Shown one piece after another: positions 46,144-63,932 of a stretch of DNA of 64,000 nucleotides. The notes under the pieces were generated by a model. That model worked only from the letters and a program-made list of their open reading frames with translations. It made no database searches and was not told where the DNA came from. Source of the DNA: an uncultured Caulobacteraceae bacterium (lineage in GTDB: Bacteria; Pseudomonadota; Alphaproteobacteria; Caulobacterales; Caulobacteraceae). Each line of letters begins with the position of its first letter. Positions within the stretch are counted from its first letter, which is position 1. The DNA lies in the NCBI GenBank assembly GCA_903872075.1, contig CAIQJF010000005.1:1-64000 (forward strand), written 5' to 3'. The translations under genes were made by a program, and so were the position numbers.

Positions 46144-46956
46144 CTATCCGCCTGGGCGGTCGCCGGCGCGTATTCGGGTCTCGATCTCCCGCAGAATAGG
46201 TGCAAGGTCGGCCACGGTCTCGACCACATAGTCGGCGCCGGCCGCGTAGAGGGCGTCCGCCGATTTGGCGACCTTTTCAGCCCGTTTGGCGGGCTCAAGC
46301 GCGGTGTAGGCCGCAAAGCCGAGGCCAACGCCGTTCCCGGATCCGCTCAAGCCGATGCTCCAGGTCCCGGCCGCCACGCCCTCGGCGACACCCACGGTGG
46401 AGTCGTCGATCTTGACGCAGGCTTTCGCCGGCCAGGCCCTAAGGTCGCTTAGAGCCTTCCACATCATGAGTGGAGACGGTCGCCCGGCCGCGGTCTCCCC
46501 GGCGCAGATCACCACCTCCGGGGCGTAGCCCTGGGCCGCGGCGGCCGGCAGAATGTCGGTCATCATGGCGCGGGTATAGCCCGTGGAGGAGCCTACGCGT
46601 ACGCCGTCGGCCCGCAGCGCGGCAAAGAGGTCCGCCGCGCCGGGGATAAGCTCGCCGTGCCGACCGGCCGCCACGCGCATGAGCGGTTCCAGGGCGTCAT
46701 GGATGCGGGTGACGTCGTCTTCGGTCGGGCTTGCGTCTCGCGCGGCGCGCCAGGCGCCGGCGATGCGCGGCGCGGCCAGCAGGGCGCGGACGTGATCGCG
46801 CTTGGCCACACCCATGTCGGCCCGGGCTTCCGACTCCGTGATGGCGACACCCTCGCCGTCAAAGGCCTGCAGTAGGGCTTCGACCGGCGCCATGCAGCCG
46901 AAGTCGACCATGGTTCCGGCCCAGTCGAACACCACGGCGACGATTGAGGATGTCAT
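46144..46956 (-). CDS. phnX: Phosphonoacetaldehyde hydrolase
   Basis: A 270-residue HAD-family enzyme that cleaves phosphonoacetaldehyde to acetaldehyde and phosphate. The nucleophile Asp11 lies in FDWAGTMVD, and Lys52 of DMGVAKRDH is the Schiff-base lysine specific to this branch. GSSTGYTRAMM and KIDDSTVGVAEG complete the HAD motifs. Start at 46,956 overlaps the FAD oxidoreductase stop by four bases. The usual partner transaminase phnW is not nearby. Confidence 0.93.
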   Translation of the reverse strand: MTSSIVAVVFDWAGTMVDFGCMAPVEALLQAFDGEGVAITESEARADMGVAKRDHVRALLAAPRIAGAWRAARDASPTEDDVTRIHDALEPLMRVAAGRHGELIPGAADLFAALRADGVRVGSSTGYTRAMMTDILPAAAAQGYAPEVVICAGETAAGRPSPLMMWKALSDLRAWPAKACVKIDDSTVGVAEGVAAGTWSIGLSGSGNGVGLGFAAYTALEPAKRAEKVAKSADALYAAGADYVVETVADLAPILREIETRIRAGDRPGG

Positions 46957-48095
46957 AGTCCGGTATCTCCCAGAGGGGTGTTGAAGAGCTCGCCGATCAC
47001 CTCCTCGGCGATGGCGAAGGATGTCGAGGCGCCCGTGCCGCTGGTCACCATGGCCAGCCGGACGTTCGGCGCTGGCGCGTCGACGAACATGGCCGCCTCG
47101 GCGCTGGCGTAGGTGCCGGTCCAACGGGCGAGCACCGGCGGCGGCGCGAGGCCGGTCGCGGCCTCGAACTCCGTCAGGATCAGCCCTTCAACGTCGCCCG
47201 GCGCGAAGGGGTCGGGAGTTGCGGCATAATGGTGGCTGTCGCCGACCACGAGAGACCCGTCCGCGCTCTGCGCCACGATCAGATGGATTCCGTTCCGCAG
47301 ACAGTCCGCCTGTTCCTTGGCGAGGCGTTGCGCCAGGGGCGCGGCCTCGGGGAGTGCGCCGTAGCCCAGATAGCGGATGAGCCCCAGGTCTGACATGACC
47401 GGAGAGGGCAGGCGAACGCCGGGGTCGCCTAGGCGAAGCATGCTCAGACGGCATCGTGTCACGCCGTAGGCCGCGATCCGATCCGGGAATAGCGAGACAA
47501 GGTCGTCACCCGGACAGACCACCGCCGCCTCCGCCTCGACAGTCCCGCGCGAGGTCAGGATGCGCGGCGGTTCGACGGCCAGAACGGCGGTCGACGACAT
47601 GAACACCACGCCGTGCACAGCCTCCAGCCAGGCGCGGAGGGCCGGGATGGCCAGCGTCGACTCCACGCGGAGTTCGTGAGGGCTGTACAGGGCGCCCCGC
47701 ACGGCGGCGGGCCGCAGCATCGGAAAGCGGCGCTTGAGAGTGGCGGCTGAAAGGTGCTCGCAGGCCTCGCCCATTTCCGTGGCCAGGAACGCCGCCACGA
47801 CGGCCGAAGCTTCTTCCCGGCGATAGGGGAGGACGAGACCGCGCTGCTGCACCGTGATCCCGGCGGCGGGTGCGGCGACCGCCCAGAGATCCCGGGACCG
47901 TCGGGCGCGCCGCCAGACCTCGCCGCGGGCCTGGCCGGTGACCGTCACGAAGCCGAAGTTGCGGATCGAGGCGCCATTGGCCTGGCTGTCGCGCTCGATC
48001 ACCACCACGCGTTTGCCCAGACGCGCGCCGGCCCAGGCGTGGGCCAGACCCAGAATTCCCGAGCCGACCACGGCCAGATCGTAGGGGTTGCTCAT
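46953..48095 (-). CDS. FAD-dependent oxidoreductase linked to phosphonate catabolism
   Basis: A 380-residue DAO-fold enzyme. The ADP-binding start is VVGSGILGLAHAW, and the segment SIRNFGFVTVTGQ is typical of the TIGR03364-like family found beside phosphonate genes. Members are thought to oxidise aminophosphonates, giving phosphonoacetaldehyde that PhnX cleaves. The exact substrate is inference. The ATG at 48,095 gives the correct N-terminus. It is coupled to phnX by a four-base overlap. Confidence 0.87.
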   Translation of the reverse strand: MSNPYDLAVVGSGILGLAHAWAGARLGKRVVVIERDSQANGASIRNFGFVTVTGQARGEVWRRARRSRDLWAVAAPAAGITVQQRGLVLPYRREEASAVVAAFLATEMGEACEHLSAATLKRRFPMLRPAAVRGALYSPHELRVESTLAIPALRAWLEAVHGVVFMSSTAVLAVEPPRILTSRGTVEAEAAVVCPGDDLVSLFPDRIAAYGVTRCRLSMLRLGDPGVRLPSPVMSDLGLIRYLGYGALPEAAPLAQRLAKEQADCLRNGIHLIVAQSADGSLVVGDSHHYAATPDPFAPGDVEGLILTEFEAATGLAPPPVLARWTGTYASAEAAMFVDAPAPNVRLAMVTSGTGASTSFAIAEEVIGELFNTPLGDTGL

Positions 48096-48321
48096 GCCGT
48101 GTCGCTCGCCTTCCGATCCCCTGTGAGTCGCGGGCTGTGGCCTGCCGCGTGACGCGACGCAAGCTGTCCGCCGTCGCAGGGCGGGCATAGGGACGGCTTA
48201 TGTCAGTTCGTTGACAGATCATGAGGCAATCCGCCGTTCTGTCGCCGCGAAGGCAAAAGCCTATCGGCGCGCGCCCGCCCCTGGGCTAGGGGATGAGTCC
48301 CCGGTTCGCGAAAGGATGCTC

Positions 48322-49557
48322 ATGCCACGCCGCTTTACCCTCTTCGTGGTCGCCGCCATGCTCGGCGGCGTCCTGGCGGGCTTCATCCTCAATCAGACGG
48401 TCACCGATCCGGGGCAGCTGAAACAGGTGGCCGAGTGGCTCTCGATCGTCACCGATATCTTCCTGCGGCTGATCAAGATGATCATCGCCCCCCTCGTGTT
48501 CTCGACCCTGGTGGTCGGTATCGCCCACATGGAAGACAGCGCCGCCATCGGTCGGGTCGGCGTGAAAACCATCGGCTGGTTCATCGGCGCCTCGGTGGTT
48601 TCGCTGACCATCGGCCTGATCATGGTCCACATCCTGCAACCGGGCGTGGGCTTGAACCTCGCCGTGCCGCCGGTGGCGGCCAAGAGCGGCGTCGCCGCCC
48701 AGGCCCTCACCCTCAAGGACTTCATCACCCACGTCTTCCCCACCTCCATCGTCGGGGCCATGGCCAACAACGAAATCCTGCAGATCGTCGTGTTCTCGGT
48801 GTTCGTCGGCACGGCGATCTCCGCCGTGGAGGAACGCGCGCCCGCGGTCATGATGCTGGCCGAGCAGATCGCCCAGATCATGCTGAAGATGACCGGCTAT
48901 GTGATGCTGTTCGCGCCCTTCGCCATCTTCGCGGCCCTGGCCTCGACGGTGGCCACCCAGGGCCTCGGGGTTCTTCTGGGCTACGCCAAGTTCGTCGGCG
49001 GCTTCTATCTCTCGCTTGGCCTGCTGTGGGGCCTGCTGATGGCGGTCTGTTTCCTGGCGGTGGGCCGGCGGGTGGGAACCCTCATCGGCCTGATGCGAGA
49101 TCCCGCCGTCCTGGCCTTCTCCACGGCCAGTTCGGAAGCGGCCTATCCCCGCATCCTCGAGGGCCTGCAAACCTTCGGCGTCTCGCGCCGGATCGCCAGT
49201 TTCGTCCTGCCGCTCGGCTATTCGTTCAACCTGGACGGGTCGATGATGTACTGCACCTTCGCGACCCTGTTCATCGCCCAGGCCTATCACATCCCCATGA
49301 CCCTCGGTCAGCAGGTGATCATGCTGCTGCTGCTGATGGTCACCAGCAAGGGCATGGCGGGGGTGCCGCGGGCGTCGCTGGTGGTGATCGCCGCGACCCT
49401 GTCGTATTTCCACCTGCCGGAAGCGGGGCTCCTGCTCATCCTGGCCGTCGACCACCTGCTCGACATGGGCCGCAGCGCCACCAATGTGGTGGGCAATTCG
49501 GTGGCCGCGACGGTGATCGCCAAGTGGGAGAAAGAGCTCAGCGATCAGCCGGCGTAA
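48322..49557 (+). CDS. Dicarboxylate/amino acid:cation symporter (DAACS)
   Basis: A 411-residue secondary transporter of the GltP/DctA family, with eight helices and two re-entrant loops. AFSTASSEAAYPRI is the serine-rich hairpin, and SFNLDGSMMY and SVAATVIAKWE the substrate and cation region. ATG 48,322 is taken because AAAGGA lies seven bases upstream; Met48,316 is close. Substrate is an acidic amino acid or C4-dicarboxylate. Its end overlaps the convergent acetyltransferase by 13 bases. Confidence 0.93.
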   Translation: MPRRFTLFVVAAMLGGVLAGFILNQTVTDPGQLKQVAEWLSIVTDIFLRLIKMIIAPLVFSTLVVGIAHMEDSAAIGRVGVKTIGWFIGASVVSLTIGLIMVHILQPGVGLNLAVPPVAAKSGVAAQALTLKDFITHVFPTSIVGAMANNEILQIVVFSVFVGTAISAVEERAPAVMMLAEQIAQIMLKMTGYVMLFAPFAIFAALASTVATQGLGVLLGYAKFVGGFYLSLGLLWGLLMAVCFLAVGRRVGTLIGLMRDPAVLAFSTASSEAAYPRILEGLQTFGVSRRIASFVLPLGYSFNLDGSMMYCTFATLFIAQAYHIPMTLGQQVIMLLLLMVTSKGMAGVPRASLVVIAATLSYFHLPEAGLLLILAVDHLLDMGRSATNVVGNSVAATVIAKWEKELSDQPA

Positions 49558-50072
49558 CCGGCTTCGGTAAGGGCGTAGAACACATTCACCGACGGCGCGC
49601 CGAGCACGGTGGAGATCGATGTCCGGTCGGCGAGGCGGGCGCCGAGCTTTTCCACTGCCCGCCGGGAGCGGAAGTTGGTCTCGCCGACGCGGAAGATCAC
49701 GGTGTTCACGAAGCGGAAGGCGTGGCGCAGCATGAGCCGCTTCATGTCCGTGTTGTGCGCCCCACCCCACCAGGCCCGGCCCAGGAAGGTCCAACCGATC
49801 TCGATCTCGCCCGGCTCGGTGAACAGGGCGGAAAAGCGGGACCAGCCGATCGTGTCGCCGGTAGCCCGGTCGATGGCGACCAAGGCCCCGCCGGAGGCCA
49901 GGCCGTCCTCGAAGAAGGCGCGAAACACATCGTCTTTCCAGCGGTCGGACGCCGGGTGCAGCGCCCACACCGCGGGGTCGGACCCCAGAGCGTAGAGCGC
50001 CGCCCAGTCGTCGGCCGTGACCGGCCGCATCTCGACGATCTCGCCGGTCAGGTGGGGTTGATAGTCGAACAT
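49545..50072 (-). CDS. GNAT family N-acetyltransferase (RimJ/RimL type)
   Basis: A 175-residue acetyltransferase. Starts LTGEIVEMRPVTADDW, shows GWTFLGRAWWGGAHN, the segment used for pantetheine binding in the RimJ/RimL group, and FRVGETNFRSRRAVEKLGA. The target (protein N-terminus or small molecule) is unknown. It overlaps the end of the convergent symporter by 13 bases. Confidence 0.88.
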   Translation of the reverse strand: MFDYQPHLTGEIVEMRPVTADDWAALYALGSDPAVWALHPASDRWKDDVFRAFFEDGLASGGALVAIDRATGDTIGWSRFSALFTEPGEIEIGWTFLGRAWWGGAHNTDMKRLMLRHAFRFVNTVIFRVGETNFRSRRAVEKLGARLADRTSISTVLGAPSVNVFYALTEAGYAG

Positions 50073-50146
50073 GCCGTCTCGCCTGCAGGTGTCATCTGGC
50101 GCGCGTTCTATAGTCGAGGATGGGCGCGCCGGTCAGTCCCGATCAG

Positions 50147-50254
50147 TCAGGCCCCGACGAAGGCGATCGAGCCCATCAGCAGCGGGGCGAGCAGGCAGAC
50201 CGTGGCCAGGATGGAGACGACGGTTTCGAAGCGCTGGGTGAAGGAAGCGAACAT
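50147..50254 (-). CDS. 35-residue single-pass membrane peptide
   Basis: A short frame from the ATG at 50,254 with an excellent ribosome site (AGGAG, seven bases upstream). The product has a short polar start (MFASFTQRFETV) and one membrane helix (about 13-33, ILATVCLLAPLLMGSIAF). I do not know a family. A good ribosome site and clean helix make it more likely than chance. Confidence 0.6.
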   Translation of the reverse strand: MFASFTQRFETVVSILATVCLLAPLLMGSIAFVGA

Positions 50255-50393
50255 GGGAAGGCTCCTGTGGGTTCGGCTTGTGGCGACGGGCGTGCCTGCC
50301 CGTCCGTGAGCCGATATGCGCCACGATCCCGTGCCTAACAAAATTGCATAGTATTGGATGATAACTATGCATGAATGGAGTCTCGCGGGCCGC

Positions 50394-52151
50394 TCAGCGA
50401 CTCCAGGTCCAGTCGGCGCCGGCGGAACGGCAGCCGCCGCCGCTGGCGGTCTTGAACGCCCGCCCCCTGACGACCCGTCCGGGGCGTTCAGCGGTGGGTT
50501 CGCCGTTTTCCAGGGCCAGGCGGCCATTGACGATCACATCGACCACGCCGGTGGCGTACTGGGCCGGTTTTGCGAAGGTGGCGTGGTCCTGCACCTTGTC
50601 GGGATCGAACAGCACCACATCGGCCATGTCGCCGGGCCGCAGGTGGCCGCGGTCGGCCAGCGACAGGGTCTCGGCCGGCAGGGCGGAGAGCTTGCGGATC
50701 GCCGCCGGCAGGGTGAGCGCCTTATCGTCCCGCACATACTTCGCCAGCACCCGGGCGAAGTTGCCGTAAGCGCGGGGGTGATCGTTGGAGAGCAGGAACA
50801 CGCCCTCGGCGGACGGCGCCCCGGCGTCGGAGTCGAAGCTCATCCACGGCAGGGCGACCTCCCGGCGCAGATTGGTCTCGCTCATCTCGAAATAGGCCAC
50901 CTCGATCCGTGAGCCGTCCTCGACCACGAGATCCATGGCGGTCTCCTCAGGGCTCTTACCGCGCATCCTCGCCACTTCGGCCAGGGTCTTGCCGGCCAGG
51001 GGCTTCAGCGCCGCGGTCTTGAAGCCGAGCAACAGGATGCCGTCCGGTCCCGCCGATCCATAGCCGCTGTCCCAGTCGGCCGGGTGCGGGTTGCGCATCT
51101 CGGCGGCCACGCGGGCGCGGATGGCCGGATCCTTGAGCCGTTCGACCCACTTCTCCAGCCCGCCGTCCTGGACCCAGGGCGGCATGGAGGCGTCGAGCCC
51201 GGTGGCGCTGGCCACATAGGCGTACATGTCGGCGGTGATCCGCGTCCCCTGGGCCCGGGCCGCCTCGATCCGTGCGATCGCCGGTTCCAGCTTGGCCCAG
51301 TTGTCCTTGCCCGCCTGTTTGAAGTGATAGATCTCGGCCGGCGCGCCGGAGCCGCGGGCGACGGCGATGGTCTCGTCGATGGATTCCAGCAGCCGGTCGC
51401 CCTCGTTGCGCATATGGGCGATGTACATGCCGCCGCAGCGCCCGGATTCGCTGGCCAGATCGACCAGCTCCGGCGTTCTGGCGAATGTGGCGGGCACATA
51501 TTCCAGGGCGGTGGTCAGGCCAAGCGCCCCTTCCTCCATGGCCTGGCTCACAAGTCCGCGCATCTTCGACAGCTGGTCGGCGGTGGGCTGCACATTGCCT
51601 TCGCCCAGGACATAGGTCCGCACCGTTCCGGCGCTGACGAAGGAGGCGATGTTGACCGAGACGCCGCGCGCCTGAAGTCCCTCAAGATATTGGCCAAGGC
51701 TCGTCCAATCGACCTTGAACTTGATGTCGCCCTGACGCGCGACCATCAGCTGCTTCATCTCCGGCGACAGCGGACCCATGGAGTCCTCGCCCAGCACCTC
51801 CAGGGTCACGCCCTGACGCAGGTCGCTCTGGGCGCGACCGTCGACCAGCAACGACTGCTCCGGATGGGCAAGCATGTTGATGAAGCCGGGCGACACGGCC
51901 AGCCCCCGGGCGTCGATCTCGCGCTCCCCATGGCCGGCCAGACCCGGGCCGACCGCGGCGATGCGCTCGCCCTGGATGGCCACATCGCCCACGTAGGGCG
52001 CGTCGCCCGAGCCGTCATAAATCGTTCCGCCGCGCAGGATCAGCGAATAGGACTCGGCCTTCGCTGTCGCTAGGTTGGACGCTGCAAGGAGCGCCGTCAG
52101 CCCGGCTATCGACAGAGCGGTCAGCCGCGGCGCGCGCCGGCGCGAACTCAA
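50394..52151 (-). CDS. Exported amidohydrolase, D-aminoacylase-like
   Basis: A 585-residue protein with a signal peptide (1-32) and an amidohydrolase barrel. GGTIYDGSGDAPYVGDVAI and GERIAAVGPGL are the N-acyl-D-amino-acid deacylase start. Where relatives have the metal motif GFIDxHxH the text is GFINMLAHPEQS, so one His is missing, and the Cys ligand region reads LGEDSMGPL. HMRNEGD and YHFKQAGKDN keep later metal His. The substrate may be an N-acyl or cyclic amide. Stop and start overlaps of four bases couple it to the molybdenum hydroxylase genes. Confidence 0.84.
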   Translation of the reverse strand: MSSRRRAPRLTALSIAGLTALLAASNLATAKAESYSLILRGGTIYDGSGDAPYVGDVAIQGERIAAVGPGLAGHGEREIDARGLAVSPGFINMLAHPEQSLLVDGRAQSDLRQGVTLEVLGEDSMGPLSPEMKQLMVARQGDIKFKVDWTSLGQYLEGLQARGVSVNIASFVSAGTVRTYVLGEGNVQPTADQLSKMRGLVSQAMEEGALGLTTALEYVPATFARTPELVDLASESGRCGGMYIAHMRNEGDRLLESIDETIAVARGSGAPAEIYHFKQAGKDNWAKLEPAIARIEAARAQGTRITADMYAYVASATGLDASMPPWVQDGGLEKWVERLKDPAIRARVAAEMRNPHPADWDSGYGSAGPDGILLLGFKTAALKPLAGKTLAEVARMRGKSPEETAMDLVVEDGSRIEVAYFEMSETNLRREVALPWMSFDSDAGAPSAEGVFLLSNDHPRAYGNFARVLAKYVRDDKALTLPAAIRKLSALPAETLSLADRGHLRPGDMADVVLFDPDKVQDHATFAKPAQYATGVVDVIVNGRLALENGEPTAERPGRVVRGRAFKTASGGGCRSAGADWTWSR

Positions 52152-52954
52152 GCCGGCTGCGCCAGGAGGTCGGCGACCGCGCGGCGGGCCATTACCCGCA
52201 GCAGGTTCCCGCGGTATTCGGCCGAGGCGTGCATGTCGCTGTTGAAACGGTCGTGGTCGATGACGACGTCGTCCAGGGCGGCCGGATCCAGCCGTTGGTT
52301 CAGGGCCGCCTCGAACTCCGCCGGCCGGAAGGCGCAGGGGCCCGCGCCGGTGACCCCGACCCGGACGCCGGCGGCGAACTGGGCCACGAACACGCCCACC
52401 ACCGCATAGCGCGAGGCGGGATTGGGGAACTTGCGATAGGCCGCGCGCCGGGGGATCGGAAACGCGATGGAGCGGATAAGTTCGCCCTCTTCGAGGGCCG
52501 TCTGGAACAGGTCCTGGAAATAGTCCTCGGCGGCGATGGTCCGGTGGTCTGTCTGAAGGGTCGCGCCCAGGCCGATCACCGCGGCCGGATAGTCGGCCGA
52601 CGGGTCGCTGTTGGCCACCGAGCCGCCCAGGGTGCCGCGATTGCGCACCTGGGTGTCGCCGATCTGGGAGGCCAGGAAGGCCAGGGCCGGAATGGAGCCC
52701 TTAATCTGCTCCGACGCCGCGACCTCGGCGTGGCGGGTCATGGCGCCGATGGTCACGCGATCCGCCGTCACCTCGATCCCGGTCAGGCCTGTGACACCGG
52801 CCAGGTCGATCAGATCCGACGGCGAGGCCAGCCGTTGCTTCAGGGTCGGTAGCAGGGTCATGCCCCCGGCCAGATAGGAGCCGTCGGCCGCACCGGCGCG
52901 CAGCGCGATCGCCGCGGCGACGCTGTCGGGGTGATGATAGTCGAACTCGTACAT
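52148..52954 (-). CDS. Molybdenum hydroxylase FAD subunit (CoxM-like)
   Basis: A 268-residue FAD-binding subunit of a xanthine-dehydrogenase-family enzyme. AGGMTLLPTLKQRLASP and NRGTLGGSVANSDPSADYPA are the two FAD motifs. It passes electrons from the 2Fe-2S subunit to FAD. It lies 14 bases downstream of the large-subunit gene and overlaps the amidohydrolase gene by four. Confidence 0.92.
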   Translation of the reverse strand: MYEFDYHHPDSVAAAIALRAGAADGSYLAGGMTLLPTLKQRLASPSDLIDLAGVTGLTGIEVTADRVTIGAMTRHAEVAASEQIKGSIPALAFLASQIGDTQVRNRGTLGGSVANSDPSADYPAAVIGLGATLQTDHRTIAAEDYFQDLFQTALEEGELIRSIAFPIPRRAAYRKFPNPASRYAVVGVFVAQFAAGVRVGVTGAGPCAFRPAEFEAALNQRLDPAALDDVVIDHDRFNSDMHASAEYRGNLLRVMARRAVADLLAQPA

Positions 52955-52968
52955 GGTCCCGGCCCTCC

Positions 52969-55311
<2,343 letters not shown>

Positions 55312-55322
55312 CGCCCCGCTCC

Positions 55323-55781
55323 CTACAGCCGCTCGGCGGCGCTGAGCACCGCCTTGACGATGTTGTGATAGCCTGTGCAGCGGCAGAGGTTGCCCTCAAG
55401 GCCTTCGCGCACCTTGGTCTCGTCCAGCGGTCCGGCGTTCTGCACCAGGTCGATGGCGGCCATGATCATGCCCGGGGTGCAGAACCCGCACTGCAGACCG
55501 TGAGCGTCCTGGAATGCGGCCTGCATGGGATGCAGATTGCCCGGCGCGCCGATGCCCTCGATGGTGGTGACCGCCGCGCCCTGCGCCTGGGCCGCCAGGA
55601 TGGTGCAGGACTTCACGGCCCGCCCATTGAGATGCACCGTACAGGCCCCGCACTGGCTGGTGTCGCAGCCCACATGGGTGCCGGTGAGGCCCAGATGGCC
55701 GCGGATCAAATCCGAAAGCAGGGTGTTGGCCGGCAGGTCGGCTTCAACGGGCCTCTCATTAACGGTCAAAGACACCTTCAC
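55323..55781 (-). CDS. Molybdenum hydroxylase 2Fe-2S subunit (CoxS-like)
   Basis: A 152-residue subunit with two [2Fe-2S] clusters. The plant-type site is [16 protein letters not shown], with a further Cys in VKSCTILA; the second site is [11 protein letters not shown] and CRCTGYHNI. It lies 11 bases before the large-subunit gene. Length and motif order are normal for the family. Confidence 0.96.
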
Positions 55782-55815
55782 GCCGTCGTCTCCCTGTTCG
55801 AATGTTCGGATGAGC

Positions 55816-56391
55816 CTAGCGGCTTGAGAGCAGGGCGATAAGGCCCATGATGAGGGTTCCGGCCACGATAAGCGTGACAGGGATCCAGCCCGGCACGCCC
55901 TTGGCCTTCACGGCCTCCGCGACAGGCGCGGCCGTGACAGCCTCGCTGGCCCCTGGGGCGACCAGTTCCCCGAACTTGGCGAAGAAATCGTCGGCCATCT
56001 TGCGGGCCGTGCCGTCGATCAGGCGCTGGCCGACCTGGGCCAGCTTGCCGCCCACATTGCCCTCGACCTCATAGCGCAGCAGGGTGCCCCCAGCCTCCGG
56101 AGTCAGGGAGACCTTGGCCACGCCCTTGCCGAAACCGGCGGCGCCGCCCTTGGCGCTGGCCTGCAGGGAATAGGAATGCGGCGGGTTGAGATCGGCCAGG
56201 GTCACCTCGGCCGTGAAGGTGGCGCTCACCGGTCCGACCTTGGCCTTGACCACGGCCGTGAAGCCGTCGTCGCCCGTCCGGGTCATGGACTGACAGCCCT
56301 CGATGCACTGGGCCAGCACCTCGGGATCGTTCAGCGCCCGCCACACCTGTTCGGCGCTCGCGCCGATCCGGTACTCGCCAGATTGCTGCAT
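55816..56391 (-). CDS. CoxG-like SRPBCC protein with membrane tail
   Basis: A 191-residue protein. The SRPBCC/START-like fold covers about 1-145 ([20 protein letters not shown], split over two motifs, and LSLTPEAGG-like strands). A Pro/Ala linker is followed by a membrane helix ([18 protein letters not shown]). In CO dehydrogenase systems CoxG tethers the enzyme to the membrane and passes electrons; here the partner is a form II enzyme. Start is the ATG at 56,391. Confidence 0.87.
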
Positions 56392-56472
56392 TGTCTCTCC
56401 CTGATCCTGCGCTGGCGTCGTCGCATTATCGCCCGGGAGAGGCAACCGGCGCGCCGTGGCGCGCCGGCCGGA

Positions 56473-57462
56473 TCACGCCGACTTGGCGGCTTCTTCGAAC
56501 CAGCGGCGGGGATTGTCGACGACGATGCCGTCCAGAACCTCGTCGGTCAGGCCCATCCGCTTCAGTTCGGGGAAGATGTTCTCGAACAGGTGGGTCATGC
56601 GCCAGTTGGGCAGGGTGGCCTGCAGGTCGGCCGGATCGCCGCCGGCGTAGCTGCCGAGCCAGCAGTTGACGGTGTCGTGGCTGACCATGACCCGGTCCTT
56701 GTGGCCGCAGTCGACCATGGCCTTGAGGTTCTTCATCCGGATGGCGTCGGGGATCATCATCTCCAGGCCGAACCGGTCGAAGCCCACATAGGCGCCGCGG
56801 TCGGCCAGGGCCTTCTGATAGGGATGGTCGTCGCGGCCGTCGCTGTGGCCGACGATCATGTGCGAGGCCGGCAGGCCTTCGCCGGTGACGATGTCGATCT
56901 GGTCGTGGCCGCAGGAGCAGTTCTCGGTGTGCGAGATCAGGGGCGCGCCGGTGAGCTTGGCGGCCTTGGCCGCGGCGGTGAGGATCTTGCGCTCATATTC
57001 CGACACCAGGCCCTCGCCGGTGGCGATCTTGATCACCCCGCACTTGATGCCGGTGGCGGCCACGCCGTCCTCGATCTCCTTCTGGAAGCACTCGACGATC
57101 TGATCCACCGACAGCTCGTTGAAGGTGTAGGGAATGCCCATGGATTCCACATAGGCGCCGGTGGCGCAGATCAGGGTCACGCCGCTCTTCTGCGAGACCT
57201 CGGCGATCACGTCCACGTCGCGGCCCAGATCCATGGGGCAGGGGTCGATCACGGTGCGCACGCCATAGGCGTGGAGCTGCTGGAAGGCGTCGACGCAGCG
57301 GGCGACGGCTTCGCGGCGGTCGAAGGCGGGCATACGGGCGTCCATGAACCAGCCGGGGAAGCCCACCAGCACATGCTCATGGATCAGGGTCCGGCCCAGA
57401 TCGTCGACGGTTCTCTTGCCTTGAACGGTGTTCACCTGGACGGTCACGATCGTCTCTCCCAT
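56473..57462 (-). CDS. Phosphotriesterase-family metal hydrolase
   Basis: A 329-residue amidohydrolase-superfamily barrel. Visible ligands are the HxH in LIHEHVLVG, the bridging Lys in GVIKIATG, His in SHTENCSCG, His in GHSDGRDD and Asp in VSHDTVNC. Relatives are lactonases as well as phosphotriesterases, so a lactone or ester is the likelier substrate. It lies 81 bases upstream of coxG in the same direction. ATG 57,462 gives the family N-terminus. Confidence 0.9.
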   Translation of the reverse strand: MGETIVTVQVNTVQGKRTVDDLGRTLIHEHVLVGFPGWFMDARMPAFDRREAVARCVDAFQQLHAYGVRTVIDPCPMDLGRDVDVIAEVSQKSGVTLICATGAYVESMGIPYTFNELSVDQIVECFQKEIEDGVAATGIKCGVIKIATGEGLVSEYERKILTAAAKAAKLTGAPLISHTENCSCGHDQIDIVTGEGLPASHMIVGHSDGRDDHPYQKALADRGAYVGFDRFGLEMMIPDAIRMKNLKAMVDCGHKDRVMVSHDTVNCWLGSYAGGDPADLQATLPNWRMTHLFENIFPELKRMGLTDEVLDGIVVDNPRRWFEEAAKSA

Positions 57463-57585
57463 GGATTGGCCCGGCCGGCGGCGTCGAGGCCTCCGGCGAT
57501 GCAAGGGTTCTCCCGTGCCGCGCCCCTCTCCGTCAAGGCGCGGACGCGAAAAGATTGAAACGCGTTATTCGAATTCCGTGTCCGC

Positions 57586-58890
57586 CTAACGCGCCATCGC
57601 CGCGGCGGTCTTCGCCTCGTTCTTCTGGTAGTCCTGGAAGGCGCGGTAAACGCCGAGCTTCAGGTCCGGGTCCTTGCCGTCCGCCATCCTCAGGATCTGC
57701 AGGCAGAACCAGCCCTGTTGGCCCCAGCCGTTGAGGGCGCGCAACAAGGTGATGGGGCTGGCCGGGCCCAGCAGGCCCGGGCCGATGCGAAGGGTCTTCT
57801 CGGGAGCCGGAACCGCCTGCAGGCGTCCGTCCAGCAGTTTCACCCCGCAGGCGGGATCGACGCAGTAGGGCCTGCCGACGCCGACCACATCCATGGCCCC
57901 GTCGGCCAGGGCGGCGTTCATCCCCGCCAGGGTGCGGAAGCCCCCGGTGACCATCAGGGGCATGGTCGTGGCCGCGCGGATGTCGGCGGCGTAGGCCAGG
58001 AAATAGGCTTCGCGCGCGACGGTGCTCTGCTGGCGCACCTCGGACTTCTCGGGATGCAGGGTCAGGTTGTCGAGGCCGACAAGCCTGGGCTGTTCATAGG
58101 TGCCGCCGGAGATCTCCAGCAGGTCGACGCTTTCGGCGTTGAGCCATGCGGCCACCTGGATGGAGTCCTCATGGCTGAAGCCGCCGCGCTGGAAGTCGGC
58201 TGAATTGAGCTTCACCGAAATTGGGAAATCCGCTCCCACCGCGCGGCGCACCGCCCGCACGATCTCCAGCAGAAGACGGGCGCGGTTGCGCAGGTCCCCG
58301 CCCCAGGCGTCGGTGCGGGTGTTGACGTCCGGCGAGAGGAATTCGCTGATCAGATAGCCGTGGGCGGCGTGGATCTGAACGCCGGTGAAACCGGTTTCCC
58401 GGGCGATGGTCGCCACATGGGCGAAGCGGCCAATGGCGTCGACGATCTCCGGCTCGGTCATGGCGCGGGGCTTGCCGAACTGCGCGCCGGGCATGGCCAA
58501 GGCCACGTCCGAAGGTCCCACGGGGTCAGGGTTGACGCTCGCCGGGGTCTGCCGGCCGGCGTGGGAAATCTGCATCCACAGATGGGTGTCGTTGGCCGTG
58601 CCGGCGGCGGCGTACGCCCTCAAAGCGGCCAGGGCTTCAGGACTCTGGGGGCCCTCGATCACGACATTGCCGGGCCGTTCCAGATAACGCCGGTCCACCT
58701 GGACGTTGCCGGTGAGCAGCATGCCGGCGCCGCCGGCGGACCACCGGCCGTAGAGCGTGGCGTGCCGTGATGTGGCCCGATTGTGGGTGTCTGCGACGCC
58801 TTCGGTCATGGCTGCCTTGACCAGCCGGTTCTTCAGGGTCGCGCCGCAGGGCAGACTCATTGGCGAGGCGAGGGTGACGGTGTCGGTCAT
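57586..58890 (-). CDS. NADH:flavin oxidoreductase / Old Yellow Enzyme
   Basis: A 434-residue FMN barrel enzyme that reduces activated C=C bonds. LKNRLVKAAMTEG, the catalytic segment IHAAHGYLISEFLSP with its His pair, and WGGDLRNRARLL are family marks. The C-terminal 70 residues lack the Fe-S and FAD domains of larger dienoyl-CoA reductases, so it is the single-domain type. It opens the long minus-strand run to 50,394. Confidence 0.92.
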   Translation of the reverse strand: MTDTVTLASPMSLPCGATLKNRLVKAAMTEGVADTHNRATSRHATLYGRWSAGGAGMLLTGNVQVDRRYLERPGNVVIEGPQSPEALAALRAYAAAGTANDTHLWMQISHAGRQTPASVNPDPVGPSDVALAMPGAQFGKPRAMTEPEIVDAIGRFAHVATIARETGFTGVQIHAAHGYLISEFLSPDVNTRTDAWGGDLRNRARLLLEIVRAVRRAVGADFPISVKLNSADFQRGGFSHEDSIQVAAWLNAESVDLLEISGGTYEQPRLVGLDNLTLHPEKSEVRQQSTVAREAYFLAYAADIRAATTMPLMVTGGFRTLAGMNAALADGAMDVVGVGRPYCVDPACGVKLLDGRLQAVPAPEKTLRIGPGLLGPASPITLLRALNGWGQQGWFCLQILRMADGKDPDLKLGVYRAFQDYQKNEAKTAAAMAR

Positions 58891-59058
58891 GGCGGCGGAC
58901 GCTCCGGGGTGAGGGTCCGGGGAAGAGCGGCGCCCGCTCCGCTTGTCAAGTCACGCTTCCCCAAGGTGAGTTTGCGCAAATCTTGATCAAGTCGTGCGCG
59001 CTCGTTAGGCACGCTTTGCGGCGCCGGACTTCAGAGCGCGAACACGGGGAAACCGAGC

Positions 59059-60282
59059 ATGGGGCCGACGGCCATCAATTCCGGCGACACGGCCTGGGTG
59101 CTCAGCGCCACGGCCCTGGTGCTGTTCATGACCCTGCCCGGCCTGGCGCTGTTCTACGCCGGCCTGGTGCGGATGAAGAACGTGCTGTCGGTGATGATGC
59201 ACTGCGTGGCCGTCGCCTGCCTGGGCTCGGTGCTCTGGCTGTCGGTGGGCTACAGCCTCTCCTTCGCCGGGACCGGCCCGCTCGTAGGCGATCTGAGCAA
59301 GGCCTTCCTGCTCGGCGTGGCCCGCGACGCCCGTGTCGGATCCATTCCCGAGTCGGCCTATTTCATGTTCCAGGCCACCTTCGCGGTCATCACCCCGGCC
59401 CTCATCATCGGCGCCTATGTGGAGCGGATGAAGTTTGCCGCCGTGCTGGCCTTCAGCGGGCTGTGGCTCGTGGCGGTCTATGCTCCGGTCACCCACTGGG
59501 TGTGGGGCGGCGGCTGGCTGGCGCAGCGCCATGTGATGGACTTCGCCGGCGGCCTGGTGGTGCATGCCACCGCCGGCGCATCGGCGCTCGTGGCCGCCGT
59601 CATGGTCGGGCCTCGCGACGGCTTTCCCAAGGTGCTGCATCCGCCCCACAACCCCGGCATGACCATGATGGGGGCCGGCATGCTCTGGGTCGGCTGGTAC
59701 GGTTTCAATGGCGGCAGCGCCCTGGCCGCCAATGGCGACGCGGCCATGGCCCTGCTGGTCACCCACATGTCCGCGGCGACCGCGGGTCTGGTCTGGGCGC
59801 TGCTGGAGCGCATCCGGTTCGGGCGGTCGAGCATGGTCGGCATCGTCACCGGGGTGGTGGCGGGTCTGGCGACGATCACGCCGGCCTCGGGTTTTGTGGG
59901 CCCGCTGGGCGGGTTCGTCCTCGGCGCCTGCGGCAGCGTCGTGTGCTTCTTCGCCGTCGATGTCGTCAAACACCGCCTGAAGGTGGACGACTCCCTCGAC
60001 GTCTTCGCCGTGCACGGCGTCGGTGGCATCCTCGGCAGTCTGCTGGTCGCGGTGCTGGCCAGCTCCGCCCTGGGTGGCGCGGGCTATGCGTCCGGCGTGG
60101 ACATGACCGGTCAGGTTCTGACCCAGATCCTCGGGGTCGCGGCGGTTGTCGCCTGGTCGGTCGTCGTCAGCGCCGCCATCCTTTGGCTGGTGCGGCGGAC
60201 CCTTGGCCTGCGGGCCGGGGAGCGGGTCATCGAGGATGGTCTCGACGTCGCCGAGCACGGCGAGAGGGCCTATCCCAACTGA
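59059..60282 (+). CDS. amt: Ammonium transporter
   Basis: A 407-residue Amt protein with 11 membrane helices. The start has TLPGLALFYAGLVRMKNVLS, and the twin-His channel residues lie in GGLVVHATAG and FAVHGVGGILG. A neighbouring conserved Asp (MDFAGGLVVH) is present. No glnK gene is adjacent. No clear sigma-54 promoter is seen in the 168-base gap upstream. It converges with the acyl-CoA ligase gene with no gap. Confidence 0.95.
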   Translation: MGPTAINSGDTAWVLSATALVLFMTLPGLALFYAGLVRMKNVLSVMMHCVAVACLGSVLWLSVGYSLSFAGTGPLVGDLSKAFLLGVARDARVGSIPESAYFMFQATFAVITPALIIGAYVERMKFAAVLAFSGLWLVAVYAPVTHWVWGGGWLAQRHVMDFAGGLVVHATAGASALVAAVMVGPRDGFPKVLHPPHNPGMTMMGAGMLWVGWYGFNGGSALAANGDAAMALLVTHMSAATAGLVWALLERIRFGRSSMVGIVTGVVAGLATITPASGFVGPLGGFVLGACGSVVCFFAVDVVKHRLKVDDSLDVFAVHGVGGILGSLLVAVLASSALGGAGYASGVDMTGQVLTQILGVAAVVAWSVVVSAAILWLVRRTLGLRAGERVIEDGLDVAEHGERAYPN

Positions 60283-61953
60283 TCAGCCCGCGGGCTTGCG
60301 CAGCTCCACCCGCTGGATCTTGCCGGTGAGGGTCTTGGGCAGTTCGTCGATGACCTCGATCCGGCGAGGCACCTTGTAGCTCGCCAGCCGTTCGCGGCAG
60401 AACGCCGTGATCTCTTCCAGGGTCGCCGTCTGGCCGGGCGTGAACGAGACGAAGGCCTTCACGGTCTCGCCCCGATACGCGTCGGGCTCGCCGATCACCG
60501 CCGCCTCGCGCACCGCCGGATGGGCGATCAGCACGTCCTCGACCTCGCGCGGCCAGACCTTGAAGCCGGAGGCGCTGATCATGTCCTTCTTGCGGTCCAC
60601 CAGATAGAACCAGCCCTCTGGGTCCATGAAGCCCACGTCGCCGGAGCGCATCCAGCCGTCGTACAGCGCCTCGGCGGTCTGTTCGGGCTTGTTCCAGTAG
60701 CCGGCCATGATCTGCGGGCCGCGCATCCACACCTCGCCGATCTCGCCGGGCGGCAGGGGCTGGCCATCGTCGCCGGCGATCATCGCCTCGGTATCCTGGA
60801 TCGGAATGCCGATGGAAAGGGCGCCCGTGGCCGGGTCCACCGGCGGGCGGCGGCGGCGCGGGCCGATGTGGGTGGGACTGGTGGTTTCGGTCATGCCATA
60901 GGCGGGGAAGATCGCCTGGCCGAGCCTTTCCTCTATGGCGTCGGCCAGGGCGGGGGCGATCGGCGCCCCACCCGACATCAGGCCATCGAAGCTGGCGAAG
61001 TCGGCGGGTGAGACGCCTGGCGCGTTCATCAGGGCGTTGAAGGCGGTGATGGCCCCGCCGGTGAAGGTCGGGCGGCGCTCGCGGATGGTGTCCAACACCA
61101 GCGAGGGCTCGAACCGATAGAACAGGATCAGCGGCGCCTTGGCCGAGAAGGCTACGCCGACGTGGGCGATGATGCCGGTGATGTGGAACAGCGGGGCGAT
61201 GCCGAGAATGCTGGAGCCCGCCGGCACGGGGCCCCAGTCGCGAAAGATCTGCGAGGTGAAGGCCATGCCGGAATGCCGCAGCATGGCGCCCTTGGGCTGG
61301 CCGGTGGTGCCGGAGGTGTAGAGCAGCAGGCCCAGATCGTCCGGCGCCGGCGTGTGCGGCGGCGGCGCGCGGCCCTTGTGCGCCGCCAGGGCGGCCTGGA
61401 AGTCTGTGGTTCCGGCGGGGACCGGCCGCCGGCCGGTGAGAACCCGGGCGTCGTCGCGGCTCTGGAAGTCATGCCCGGATACCGACAGAACCGCGGCGGT
61501 CAGGCCGGCCTTCGCCAGACCCTCCAGCACCGTCGGGGCGTGATCGTCGTGGGCGACGATGACCCTGGGCGTACTGTCGGTGAATAGCTTGGCCAGTTCG
61601 TCGCGCCGGTACATGGGGTTGGCGGGGGTCGGAATGGCGCCGATCTTCCAGGCGGCCACCATGGCGATCACGAAGTGCGGCGTGTTCTGCAGGATGATGG
61701 TCACCCGGTCGCCGGCCACGGTTCCCTGGGCCGTCATCCACACGGCCAGCGCATCGCTCATGGCGTCGAGTTCGCCATAGCTGATCTCGGCGTCGAAATA
61801 GATCAGAGCGGGCGCGGCCCGGTCCGCCAGCGCCGAGCGGAACAGGCCCAGCATGTCGGCGTGTTCGCGAGTCTGGGTCGTGGGGATGCCGGGATCGTAG
61901 AGGGATAGCCAGGGTTTGCGGGCGTAGGCGTTGTCGGCCGGGGTCTGGGTCAT
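60283..61953 (-). CDS. AMP-dependent acyl-CoA synthetase
   Basis: A 556-residue ANL-family ligase that adenylates a carboxylic acid and makes its CoA thioester. The P-loop LYTSGTTGQPKGA, the YGMTETT motif, GEVWMRGPQ and the C-terminal lysine in ELPKTLTGKIQRVELRK are complete. It resembles long-chain/aryl acyl ligases, and the substrate is not visible. It is divergent from an FAD monooxygenase gene 183 bases away. Confidence 0.93.
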   Translation of the reverse strand: MTQTPADNAYARKPWLSLYDPGIPTTQTREHADMLGLFRSALADRAAPALIYFDAEISYGELDAMSDALAVWMTAQGTVAGDRVTIILQNTPHFVIAMVAAWKIGAIPTPANPMYRRDELAKLFTDSTPRVIVAHDDHAPTVLEGLAKAGLTAAVLSVSGHDFQSRDDARVLTGRRPVPAGTTDFQAALAAHKGRAPPPHTPAPDDLGLLLYTSGTTGQPKGAMLRHSGMAFTSQIFRDWGPVPAGSSILGIAPLFHITGIIAHVGVAFSAKAPLILFYRFEPSLVLDTIRERRPTFTGGAITAFNALMNAPGVSPADFASFDGLMSGGAPIAPALADAIEERLGQAIFPAYGMTETTSPTHIGPRRRRPPVDPATGALSIGIPIQDTEAMIAGDDGQPLPPGEIGEVWMRGPQIMAGYWNKPEQTAEALYDGWMRSGDVGFMDPEGWFYLVDRKKDMISASGFKVWPREVEDVLIAHPAVREAAVIGEPDAYRGETVKAFVSFTPGQTATLEEITAFCRERLASYKVPRRIEVIDELPKTLTGKIQRVELRKPAG

Positions 61954-62135
61954 AATTCCTCCGTCCGGCCCCTGGGCCGGTTGTCGCCGGCACGCTGTAG
62001 CGCCGCCGCCGGGCCTGTCAAACGGCGGCGCCGACTTTGCGTTCGGGGAGGCTTGGCCGCGCGGTCCAGGCGGGAGACAAGCGATCCCTTCGAGGCGGGA
62101 AGTCCGCCGTCGCGATGCGCGGGAGACTGAGTGCC

Positions 62136-63398
62136 ATGGACATCGTCATCGTCGGCGCCGGCATCGTTGGTCTCACCGCGGCCCTCGGCCTGCATCAGGC
62201 GGGGTTCCGGCCCGTCGTCTATGAGGCGGTGACGAAGATCGCGCCGCTGGGCGTCGGCATCAACGTCCTGCCCCACGCCGTGCGCGAACTCACCGATCTG
62301 GGCCTGTTGGACGAACTGCGCACCCTGGGAGTCGAGATCGATGAGCTGGTCTACCTCACCAAGGACGGCCGGCGGATCTGGCGGGAGCCCCGGGGCCTGG
62401 CCGCCGGCTACGCCTGGCCGCAGATCGCGATCCATCGCGGGGCGCTGCAGATGTTCCTGCTGCGTCACGTTCTGGCGCGTCTTGGGCCGGATTCGGTGCG
62501 CTTCGGCCGCGCCCTCGTCGATCTGGAGACCACGGACGCCGGCGCTGTCGCCCGTTTCGTGGACCGCGCCACCGGAGCGCCCGCCGGCGAGGTCAAGGCC
62601 GATCTGCTGCTGGCGGCCGACGGCATCCATTCGGCCGTCCGGCGGAAGTTCTATCCCGACGAGGGCATGCCGATCTGGAACGGCGTCACCCTGTGGCGAT
62701 CCACCAGCCGGTCGGGAAAGGTGCTCGGCGGCCGATCGATGCTGTGGGCGGGCCATAAGCGCCAGAAGTTCGTGGCCTATCCGATCCAATATGATGAGGC
62801 GACCGGGGAGACCCTGCTCAACTGGATCTGCGACCTGAAGGATGGCGAGGGCGCACCGCCGCCCCGTGAGGACTGGAACCAGCCGGGCCGCCGCGAGGAT
62901 TTCCTGCCCCGCTTCGCCGCCTGGCGCTGGCCGGGGATCGACGTTCCAGCCCTCGTGGGCGCGTCGAGCCAAATCTATGAGTTCCCCATGGTCGACCGCG
63001 ACCCCCTGCCGCGCTGGACCTTCGGGCGCACGACCCTGATGGGCGACGCGGCCCATCCGATGTACCCGATCGGCTCCAACGGGGCGACGCAGGGGATCAT
63101 CGACGCCCGCGCCCTGACCTTTCATCTCGCCACCGCCCCGGACGTGGGTCAGGCTCTGGCCCGCTATGAGAGCGACCGGCGGGAGGCCACCGGCCGCATC
63201 GTGCTGATGAACCGCGCCAACGGCCCCGATCAGGTCATGGAGCTGGCCGAACAGCGCGCGCCCGATCCCGGAGACGACCTCGACGCCCTGGTCCCCATGG
63301 CCGAACGCCAGGCCATCGCCGACGGCTACAAGACCATCGCCGGCTTCAACCCCGCGACCATGAACGCCGCCTCGGCCTACAGGTTGGCGGGGACCTAG
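62136..63398 (+). CDS. FAD-dependent aromatic-ring-type monooxygenase
   Basis: A 420-residue class A flavoprotein monooxygenase. The dinucleotide fold is VIVGAGIVGLTAALGLHQAG, the middle has ADGIHSAVRRKF (DG motif), and GDAAHPMYPIGSNGATQG is the second FAD motif. It resembles PhzS/salicylate hydroxylase-like enzymes. ATG 62,136 is chosen over upstream codons because it opens the FAD motif. Its substrate may be shared with the divergent acyl-CoA ligase, which is a guess. Confidence 0.92.
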   Translation: MDIVIVGAGIVGLTAALGLHQAGFRPVVYEAVTKIAPLGVGINVLPHAVRELTDLGLLDELRTLGVEIDELVYLTKDGRRIWREPRGLAAGYAWPQIAIHRGALQMFLLRHVLARLGPDSVRFGRALVDLETTDAGAVARFVDRATGAPAGEVKADLLLAADGIHSAVRRKFYPDEGMPIWNGVTLWRSTSRSGKVLGGRSMLWAGHKRQKFVAYPIQYDEATGETLLNWICDLKDGEGAPPPREDWNQPGRREDFLPRFAAWRWPGIDVPALVGASSQIYEFPMVDRDPLPRWTFGRTTLMGDAAHPMYPIGSNGATQGIIDARALTFHLATAPDVGQALARYESDRREATGRIVLMNRANGPDQVMELAEQRAPDPGDDLDALVPMAERQAIADGYKTIAGFNPATMNAASAYRLAGT

Positions 63399-63488
63399 CT
63401 GTCCCGCCGGGTTCGATGTCCGCGCAACATTCGGAGCGCGACCTCAGGGCTGGCGCGGCTAGCTGAGGAGGCAACCGGAGTTCGCCTC

Positions 63489-63917: not shown

Positions 63918-63932
63918 GACACTCGCGCTCGG

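What the first reader, a model, noticed from the sequence alone, without database searches (positions are those of the whole stretch)
50394..58890. Seven-gene candidate catabolic operon around a form II molybdenum hydroxylase
Old Yellow Enzyme, a phosphotriesterase-like hydrolase, CoxG, three hydroxylase subunits and an exported amidohydrolase run in one direction with gaps of at most about 120 bases. Hydroxylation, ring reduction and two hydrolytic steps would suit an N-heterocycle or cyclic amide. I know no described operon with this content.
Basis: inference. Interest (0 to 1): 0.75.

Follow-up and report, generated by a model that had tools for sequence, protein, structure and literature searches.

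The report
Patchwork locus: lactone-opening genes plus hydroxylase
Seven neighbouring genes in a bacterium of the Caulobacter family look like one degradation operon, but close relatives suggest three separately inherited pieces, one of which may hint at the purpose of a widespread enzyme of unclear function.

Summary
The seven genes are real, on one strand and close together (gaps 123, 81, 34, 11, 14 nt, then a 4-nt overlap). One inherited operon is not supported: of 16 genus genomes only the window's has close copies of OYE, PTE, CoxG, CutL and AmdH together. Three pieces: (1) OYE and a PTE-type lactonase, found with an acyl-CoA ligase and a flavin monooxygenase just outside the reported run; (2) CoxG-CutS-CutL-CutM, a form II 'CO dehydrogenase' cassette (AYRGAGR, S-L-M order); (3) an exported amidohydrolase found in 39 of 198 genomes, 37 of which lack a close CutL. 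In a second species the lactonase stop overlaps the CoxG start by one base, so pieces 1 and 2 may be coupled. Best reading: a reduce/open/ligate route for an unsaturated, coumarin-like lactone, with the form II hydroxylase as an optional first step and the amidohydrolase a bystander. The N-heterocycle/cyclic-amide idea is weakened, not excluded. The clue to the disputed substrate of form II enzymes is the interesting part. No activity or transcript was tested.

The parts
57586..58890 (-). OYE (NADH:flavin oxidoreductase family), piece 1
   Evidence: PF00724 168.8 bits; HxAHGY stretch kept in 8 of 8 aligned rows; >=82% orthologue only in G012 and G009 of 198 genomes besides the window's, next to PTE in both
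56473..57462 (-). PTE-family lactonase-like hydrolase, 329 aa, piece 1 core
   Evidence: PF02126 234 bits; nearest solved chains 3f4c and 4h9u (GsP and GkaP by recall); metal ligands and lactonase-type Tyr/Trp kept
60283..61953 (-). acyl-CoA ligase (feruloyl-CoA synthetase/4CL-like), piece 1, outside the reported run
   Evidence: PF00501; closest solved chain feruloyl-CoA synthetase 8wev; >=77% orthologue in G009, G012, G015, all PTE carriers; about 100 nt upstream of PTE in G015
62136..63398 (+). class A flavin monooxygenase, piece 1, outside the reported run (start by eye)
   Evidence: PF01494; NCBIfam PRK07538, 561 bits over a cut-off of 400; closest solved chains 2rgj/3c96 (PhzS by recall); >=78% orthologue in the same 3 genomes as OYE
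58943..58950 (-). CTTGACAA block upstream of OYE, candidate -35 of an OYE-PTE promoter
   Evidence: identical in G000, G012 and G009 in a spacer of 75% mean column identity; no good -10 seen, not found by the consensus scan, no transcript data
55816..56391 (-). CoxG, piece 2
   Evidence: PF06240 122.6 bits; in the same 3 of 16 genus genomes as CutL >=77%
55323..55781 (-). CutS/CoxS [2Fe-2S] small subunit, piece 2
   Evidence: Fer2_2, Fer2
52969..55311 (-). CutL/CoxL form II molybdenum large subunit, piece 2
   Evidence: MoCoBD_1/2; AYRGAGR and GCGEAG; 77% in G007, 65% in Microvirga
52148..52954 (-). CutM/CoxM FAD medium subunit, piece 2
   Evidence: FAD_binding_5
56446..56467 (-). GC-rich hairpin just after the PTE stop; a second helix in the same spacer pairs the GGGAGAG before the CoxG start
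   Evidence: spacer z -3.69, 0 of 200 shuffles as stable
50394..52151 (-). exported D-aminoacylase-like amidohydrolase, piece 3
   Evidence: PF07969; D-aminoacylase chains 1rjq/1m7j best solved relatives; match at E<=1e-80 in 39 of 198 genomes, own included

Best explanation
The run is a composite. Shown by comparison: piece 1 (OYE-PTE, with the ligase and monooxygenase next door) is a module of a few genus members; piece 2 (CoxG-CutSLM) is a form II Cox cassette lying between PTE and the SDF transporter in two of them; piece 3 (AmdH) is a widespread Caulobacterales gene that abuts CutM in this genome. Inferred mechanism: the OYE reduces the C=C bond conjugated to the carbonyl of an unsaturated lactone (coumarin-like), the PTE-family enzyme opens the resulting saturated lactone, the ligase charges the freed acid with CoA, and the monooxygenase hydroxylates an aromatic part. 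Where the form II hydroxylase is present it would act first, oxidising the carbon next to the ring heteroatom so that an O-heterocycle (or lactol) becomes the lactone; CoxG would bring the hydroxylase to the membrane for electron transfer. Substrate and order of steps are inference; only gene content, catalytic residues and distribution are shown.
For: Among 16 genus genomes: PTE >=84% in G000, G002, G009, G012, G015; ligase >=77% in G000, G009, G012, G015; OYE >=82% in G000, G009, G012; monooxygenase >=78% in the same three; CoxG and CutL >=77% in G000, G007, G015. Gene order: G012 SDF|MFS_2|PTE|OYE|Amt|ligase|monooxygenase without hydroxylase; G009 Amt|OYE|PTE on one contig and ligase|monooxygenase on another; G015 ligase|PTE|CoxG|CutS|CutL on one contig and CutL|CutM|SDF on another. 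In G015 PTE stop and CoxG start overlap by 1 nt. PTE metal ligands H28, H30, K145, H178, H206, D263 are kept in all 19 aligned rows, save D263 in one truncated row; Tyr104 is Tyr in 15 of 16 close rows. OYE HxAHGY in 8 of 8 rows. Ligase nearest feruloyl-CoA synthetase/4CL. Two FMO-like (PF00743) genes, possibly lactone-forming, lie divergently beside PTE in a Sphingomonadaceae locus (L037) and beside CoxG in G007 (L068). XenA, an OYE, reduces 8-hydroxycoumarin in quinoline degradation (PMC5519977, passages), a route that starts with a molybdenum hydroxylase (recalled; quinoline 2-oxidoreductase 1t3q is among the relatives). SsoPox and SisLac, PTE-like lactonases, hydrolyse dihydrocoumarin according to PMC4068969 (passage).
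Against: No activity or transcript data. PTE and CutL share only 2 genomes, as expected by chance (0.21). The low values for piece 1 (OYE-monooxygenase 0.0018, PTE-ligase 0.0027, PTE-OYE 0.018) are inflated by kinship: the five PTE carriers are the window genome and its four nearest kin by ArgS, and PTE with SDF (0.0014) or with AmdH >=80% (0.018; 0.37 if all full-length AmdH count) score alike. Looser relatives blur the pattern: PTE 67%, ligase 49% in G003, OYE 51-59% in G002, G003, G015, monooxygenase 52% in G010. In 10 PTE loci outside the genus no OYE or CutL relative was found at E<=1e-8; neighbours there include aldehyde dehydrogenase, EamA, HpcH, peptidase S10, MFS and a Rieske oxygenase. 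SacPox and VmoLac do not hydrolyse dihydrocoumarin. The OYE is distant from chains named xenobiotic reductase A (89-90 bits against 217 for 7fev). G015 keeps PTE and hydroxylase without the close OYE or monooxygenase. The glyceraldehyde dehydrogenase model scores above the CO dehydrogenase one for CutL, both under cut-off (670 of 790, 648 of 991), so an aldehyde substrate is open. The structured PTE-CoxG spacer could uncouple the pieces in the window genome.
Confidence: 0.4

Rival explanations
1. Neighbours without a common pathway: OYE-PTE-ligase-monooxygenase is one unit, the form II cassette does an unrelated oxidation (for example of an aldehyde), and the amidohydrolase works in the periplasm, perhaps on N-acyl or D-amino acid compounds. 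The run is co-directional by accretion at a variable site.
For: In G007 CoxG-CutSLM has no PTE, OYE or AmdH within the 12 kb read; its divergent neighbour is an FMO-like gene. Relatives on plasmids of Microvirga, Azospirillum, Sinorhizobium and Ruegeria lie among other genes. AmdH has no CoxG/Cut/PTE/OYE beside it in 11 of 11 orthologue loci read, of 38 other genomes with a match. Contents next to SDF differ in G000, G012 and G015. Glyceraldehyde dehydrogenase is the best-scoring NCBIfam model for CutL, under its cut-off.
Against: PTE-CoxG adjacency is kept in two species with different spacing, by a 1-nt overlap in one, although OYE, Amt and AmdH differ between them. Common descent of the adjacency in close kin explains this without function, so the argument is weak.
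Confidence: 0.37
2. One reading: one operon for an N-heterocycle or cyclic amide: hydroxylation, ring reduction, then two hydrolytic steps.
For: Seven genes co-directional and close; the CutM-AmdH 4-nt overlap allows translational coupling; Mo hydroxylases of N-heterocycles are relatives (1t3q).
Against: Close copies of all in 1 of 16 genus genomes; 37 of 39 genomes with an AmdH match lack a CutL at E<=1e-200 (the CutL search scored at most 5 candidates a genome); AmdH looks exported while the hydroxylase subunits do not (by eye); PTE has lactonase-type residues.
Confidence: 0.1
3. The molybdenum enzyme is an aerobic CO dehydrogenase giving energy from CO; the neighbours are incidental.
For: CoxSLM + CoxG content; best solved relative is a CoxL chain (603 bits). 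[quoted passage not shown]
Against: AYRGAGR instead of AYxCSFR; under the NCBIfam CO dehydrogenase cut-off (648 of 991 bits); isolates with only form II often show no CO uptake (PMC13203968 passage). No MoxR/VWA genes in the run, unlike Microvirga and Azospirillum, but the Sinorhizobium and Ruegeria cassettes lack them nearby too.
Confidence: 0.08
4. The PTE homologue is a quorum-quenching or organophosphate hydrolase unrelated to catabolism.
For: Solved relatives are named phosphotriesterase or organophosphorus hydrolase.
Against: Nearest chains are of the PLL-B type (by recall), described as exclusive oxo-lactonases (PMC4323659 passage); its genus companions are ligase, OYE and monooxygenase.
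Confidence: 0.05

Closest known systems
Form II Cox (coxSLM) 'CO dehydrogenase' cassette of Alphaproteobacteria
   Same: AYRGAGR, S-L-M order, 58-65% identical large subunits in Microvirga, Azospirillum, Sinorhizobium, Ruegeria; CoxG upstream also in Microvirga and Ruegeria
   Different: Sits behind a lactonase gene; no MoxR/VWA/XdhC genes beside it; role of the class described as unclear (passages)
Quinoline degradation by the 8-hydroxycoumarin route, Pseudomonas putida 86
   Same: A Mo hydroxylase (recalled) and an OYE, XenA, that reduces a coumarin (passages)
   Different: OYE here is not close to XenA; no evidence for quinoline here; whether the genes form an operon there was not looked up
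Coumarin degradation in Pseudomonas NyZ480 and 7HK4
   Same: Ene reduction of coumarins (XenA OYEs in NyZ480), then ring opening and ring hydroxylation (passages)
   Different: In NyZ480 the xenA genes are redundant and scattered; 7HK4 uses an alcohol-dehydrogenase-type reductase; no PTE-type lactonase in the passages seen
PTE-like lactonases, PLL-B (3f4c, 4h9u, Dr0930)
   Same: Metal ligands, active-site Tyr and Trp, best solved relatives
   Different: Company of OYE and ligase; activity unknown
D-aminoacylase (1m7j/1rjq)
   Same: Family; H220, H250 and D366 equivalents kept in the window protein and 11 of 11 orthologues
   Different: H67 is Leu and Cys96 is lost in the window protein and in 11 of 11 orthologues (Cys96 pairs with Asp, with a gap)

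Membership tests
Form II Cox (coxSLM) | AYRGAGR active-site motif in the large subunit | tested here: met
Form II Cox (coxSLM) | gene order S-L-M | tested here: met
   criterion from PMC13203968 passage
Form II Cox (coxSLM) | groups with alphaproteobacterial form II large subunits apart from form I | tested here: inconclusive
   14-row tree, 3 of 11 inner branches well supported; 51-77% identical to the eight other AYRGAGR rows, 40% to the one form I row; G015 CutL left out because split over two contigs
Aerobic CO dehydrogenase (form I) | AYxCSFR with Cu-binding Cys | tested here: not met
PTE-like lactonase, PLL-B | binuclear metal ligands incl. Lys | tested here: met
PTE-like lactonase, PLL-B | active-site Tyr (residue role recalled) | tested here: met
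PTE-like lactonase, PLL-B | lactone hydrolysis | not testable with these tools
   needs assay
XenA-type OYE | close sequence kinship to XenA | tested here: not met
   89-90 bits for chains named xenobiotic reductase A, 217 for 7fev
Old Yellow Enzyme family | Oxidored_FMN domain and His/His/Tyr stretch | tested here: met
D-aminoacylase | HxH and Cys96 metal ligands (numbering recalled, placed) | tested here: not met
single co-inherited seven-gene operon | co-conservation in relatives | tested here: not met
   close copies of OYE, PTE, CoxG, CutL and AmdH together in 1 of 16 genus genomes; CutS and CutM not searched on their own
single co-inherited seven-gene operon | one transcript | not testable with these tools
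   no RNA data; close spacing permits it

The most novel reading that the evidence does not exclude
Form II 'CO dehydrogenases' of this group are heterocycle hydroxylases: here one is coupled, by a 1-nt overlap in G015, to a lactonase, and makes the lactone that the PTE-type enzyme opens, giving a substrate class for an enzyme family whose role is unresolved.
Probability: 0.25. Interest if true: 0.7.

Novelty: new variant of a known kind. Interest (0 to 1): 0.4.

Why it matters
Form II Cox enzymes are common in Alphaproteobacteria and their role is described as unclear (passages). A context that places one directly behind a lactonase in two species gives a testable substrate class. A clustered OYE-lactonase-ligase-monooxygenase set would also be a compact lactone or coumarin route, whereas NyZ480 has scattered xenA genes. 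It also shows how an operon read from one genome can be a local patchwork.

Tried and rejected
Operon as inherited unit: rejected by the genus comparison. CO dehydrogenase of form I: motif not met. D-aminoacylase: two ligand positions changed. Plasmid search with PTE gave 5 records at 32-38%; in the two read, no OYE or CutL is annotated within 8 kb. Class-level search (385 genomes) gave 6, own included, with PTE at E<=1e-80; their neighbourhoods were not read. The genome-contig scan gave 16 loci; 15 were read, the 25%-identical L040 was not; five of the 15 are the same contigs as G012, G002, G015, G009 and G003 (equal contig lengths). Among the other 10, L029 has a distant CutS-like gene (37%) about 8.4 kb from PTE and L037 an AmdH-like one (30%). 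Paper searches for the combination: (phosphotriesterase, Old Yellow Enzyme, xanthine dehydrogenase, gene cluster, degradation) 0 papers; (phosphotriesterase, flavin oxidoreductase, acyl-CoA synthetase, catabolic, gene cluster) 0 papers; coumarin searches listed no paper whose title or shown abstract start names such a cluster; the library holds open-licence papers only. Papers were seen as listings or as found passages, none as a whole text. Rfam: no match at gathering score in 46000-64000. No fold prediction or fold search was run.


Full report
Observation. The seven ORFs exist as described on the minus strand of 50394-58890, with the expected Pfam families. With likely starts (OYE ATG 58890, PTE ATG 57462, CoxG ATG 56391, CutS GTG 55781, CutL ATG 55311, CutM ATG 52954, AmdH TTG 52151) the spacings are 123, 81, 34, 11, 14 and -4 nt. 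The window is contig C5 of a genome of 100 contigs, 93% complete.

What each protein is. OYE: PF00724 with the HAAHGY stretch, best solved relative 7fev, chains named xenobiotic reductase A only at 89-90 bits. PTE: PF02126, nearest to 3f4c and 4h9u; metal ligands H28, H30, K145, H178, H206 are kept in 19 of 19 aligned proteins and D263 in 18, the last being truncated. Tyr104, which aligns with the lactonase Tyr (role recalled), is Tyr in 15 of 16 close rows, Phe in L038, and Trp in the three distant 28-32% rows; Trp268 is Trp in 14 of the 15 close rows that reach it, Phe in L032. CutL: form II by motif and order, under the cut-off of each of the 13 NCBIfam models listed, the best being glyceraldehyde dehydrogenase alpha (670 of 790 bits) and CO dehydrogenase (648 of 991). 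AmdH: D-aminoacylase-like, but the HxH reads LAH and Cys96 is lost; in 11 of 11 orthologues the first His and the Cys are lost too, and in 4 of the 11 the second His is Trp.

Distribution. In 198 genomes, own included: PTE at E<=1e-30 in 8, of which 6 at 67% or more; CutL at E<=1e-200 in 5, with at most 5 candidates scored a genome; AmdH at E<=1e-80 in 39; OYE at E<=1e-60 in 72 but at 82% or more in 3. In the 16 genus genomes: PTE >=84% in G000, G002, G009, G012, G015; ligase >=77% in G000, G009, G012, G015; OYE >=82% and monooxygenase >=78% in G000, G009, G012; CoxG, and CutL >=77%, in G000, G007, G015 (the G015 CutL is in two contig-end pieces of 86 and 91%); AmdH >=81% in G000, G002, G009, with 58-70% copies in G006, G008, G011, G014 and a 299-residue match in G015. 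Only G000 has all. Weaker relatives: PTE 67%, ligase 49%, CutL 58% in G003; OYE 51-59% in G002, G003, G015; monooxygenase 52% in G010.

Counting tests give 0.0018 for OYE with monooxygenase and for CoxG with CutL, 0.0027 for PTE with ligase, 0.018 for PTE with OYE, 0.21 for PTE with CutL. They ignore kinship. By ArgS the five PTE carriers are the window genome and its four nearest kin (G012 85% over the larger of two pieces, G015 84, G002 82, G009 82; next G003 and G005 at 78). The same test gives 0.0014 for PTE with the neighbouring SDF transporter and 0.018 for PTE with AmdH at >=80% (0.37 with all full-length AmdH), so these small values prove little. The stronger argument is gene order.

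Gene order. G012: SDF, MFS_2 transporter, PTE, OYE, Amt, ligase, monooxygenase; no hydroxylase or AmdH. G009: Amt-OYE-PTE on one contig, ligase-monooxygenase on another beside the same UPF0014 gene as in the window genome, SDF on a third with other neighbours. G015: ligase-PTE-CoxG-CutS-CutL on one contig and CutL-CutM-SDF on another, so the hydroxylase lies between PTE and SDF as in the window, with no OYE, Amt, GNAT or AmdH between. G007: CoxG-CutS-CutL-CutM without PTE, OYE or AmdH in 12 kb; its divergent neighbour is FMO-like (PF00743, 25 bits, cut-off 22). G002: AmdH near SDF and GNAT with a P450-like and a luciferase-like gene (named by eye) between, PTE on another contig. AmdH had no CoxG, Cut, PTE or OYE beside it in 11 of 11 orthologue loci read. 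In G015 the PTE stop and the CoxG start share one base; in the window they are 81 nt apart, and that spacer folds better than 200 of 200 shuffles (z -3.69) into a 12-bp GC hairpin and a second helix pairing the GGGAGAG before the CoxG start. PTE and hydroxylase thus look coupled in one species and possibly separately tuned in the other. In 10 PTE loci outside the genus no OYE or CutL relative was seen; one, L037, has an FMO-like gene divergent from PTE and a Rieske oxygenase downstream.

Function. The core of piece 1 is lactonase plus ligase, with OYE and monooxygenase in three genomes: chemically reduce, open, activate, hydroxylate, as for coumarins. Precedents, all seen as passages: XenA reduces 8-hydroxycoumarin in quinoline degradation (PMC5519977); Pseudomonas NyZ480 starts simple-coumarin degradation with redundant, scattered XenAs (PMC13181038); 7HK4 uses another reductase (PMC7913881). 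The ligase is closest to feruloyl-CoA synthetase and 4CL among solved chains, the monooxygenase to 2rgj/3c96. PTE-like lactonases vary on dihydrocoumarin: SsoPox and SisLac hydrolyse it, SacPox and VmoLac do not (PMC4068969, PMC4323659). CoxG of Oligotropha is not needed for the metal cluster and is proposed to bring the enzyme to the membrane (PMC4240915). Form II enzymes: one paper calls their role unclear (PMC13203968); [quoted passage not shown] An XdhC-family protein is encoded in G000 on contig C25.

Verdict. Observation confirmed; the one-operon interpretation partly supported. The firm result is the three-piece composition. The lactone route is my best guess for piece 1, and the form II hydroxylase as its optional first enzyme is the bold, testable part. 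AmdH is most likely a neighbour. Searches found no published operon of this content in that library, which is not proof of absence.

Noticed in passing
window 50147-50254 (-): A 35-aa hydrophobic small ORF, with AGGAG upstream by eye, lies between GNAT and AmdH; a copy 64% identical over 28 aa sits on the same side of GNAT in G002 (L073:1701-1784).
   Followed up: partly
window 50345-50371: Inverted repeat TGCATAGT-N11-ACTATGCA, once in the window, none in 100 shuffles (pattern chosen after it was seen). G002 keeps ATGCAATTTTGTT but not the full repeat. Possibly an operator or promoter of the small ORF-GNAT pair.
   Followed up: partly
window 56390-56475: The PTE-CoxG spacer folds into a GC hairpin plus a helix that covers the likely CoxG ribosome-binding site; z -3.69; no Rfam match. 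The OYE-PTE spacer is unremarkable (z -0.84).
   Followed up: partly
window 50394-52151 and 11 orthologues: A Caulobacterales group of D-aminoacylase-like proteins, exported by the look of it, in which the first His of HxH and Cys96 are replaced while H220, H250 and D366 equivalents stay.
   Followed up: partly
G000 contig C88, L070:8800-16593: A second form II large subunit (58%) near a MarR regulator, a different amidohydrolase (PF01979), a P450 and a ThuA-family gene; G003 (L069) shares the large subunit and relatives of the MarR, amidohydrolase and ThuA genes.
   Followed up: partly
L068:4605-6767 (G007) and L037:7907-9544: Related FMO-like (PF00743) genes lie divergently beside CoxG-CutSLM in G007 and beside PTE in a Sphingomonadaceae MAG; if Baeyer-Villiger-type they would make lactones.
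   Followed up: no
window 46147-48095 (-): Phosphonoacetaldehyde hydrolase (TIGR01422, over cut-off) beside the TIGR03364 FAD oxidoreductase (over cut-off), possibly a phosphonate-degradation pair, next to the variable segment.
   Followed up: no
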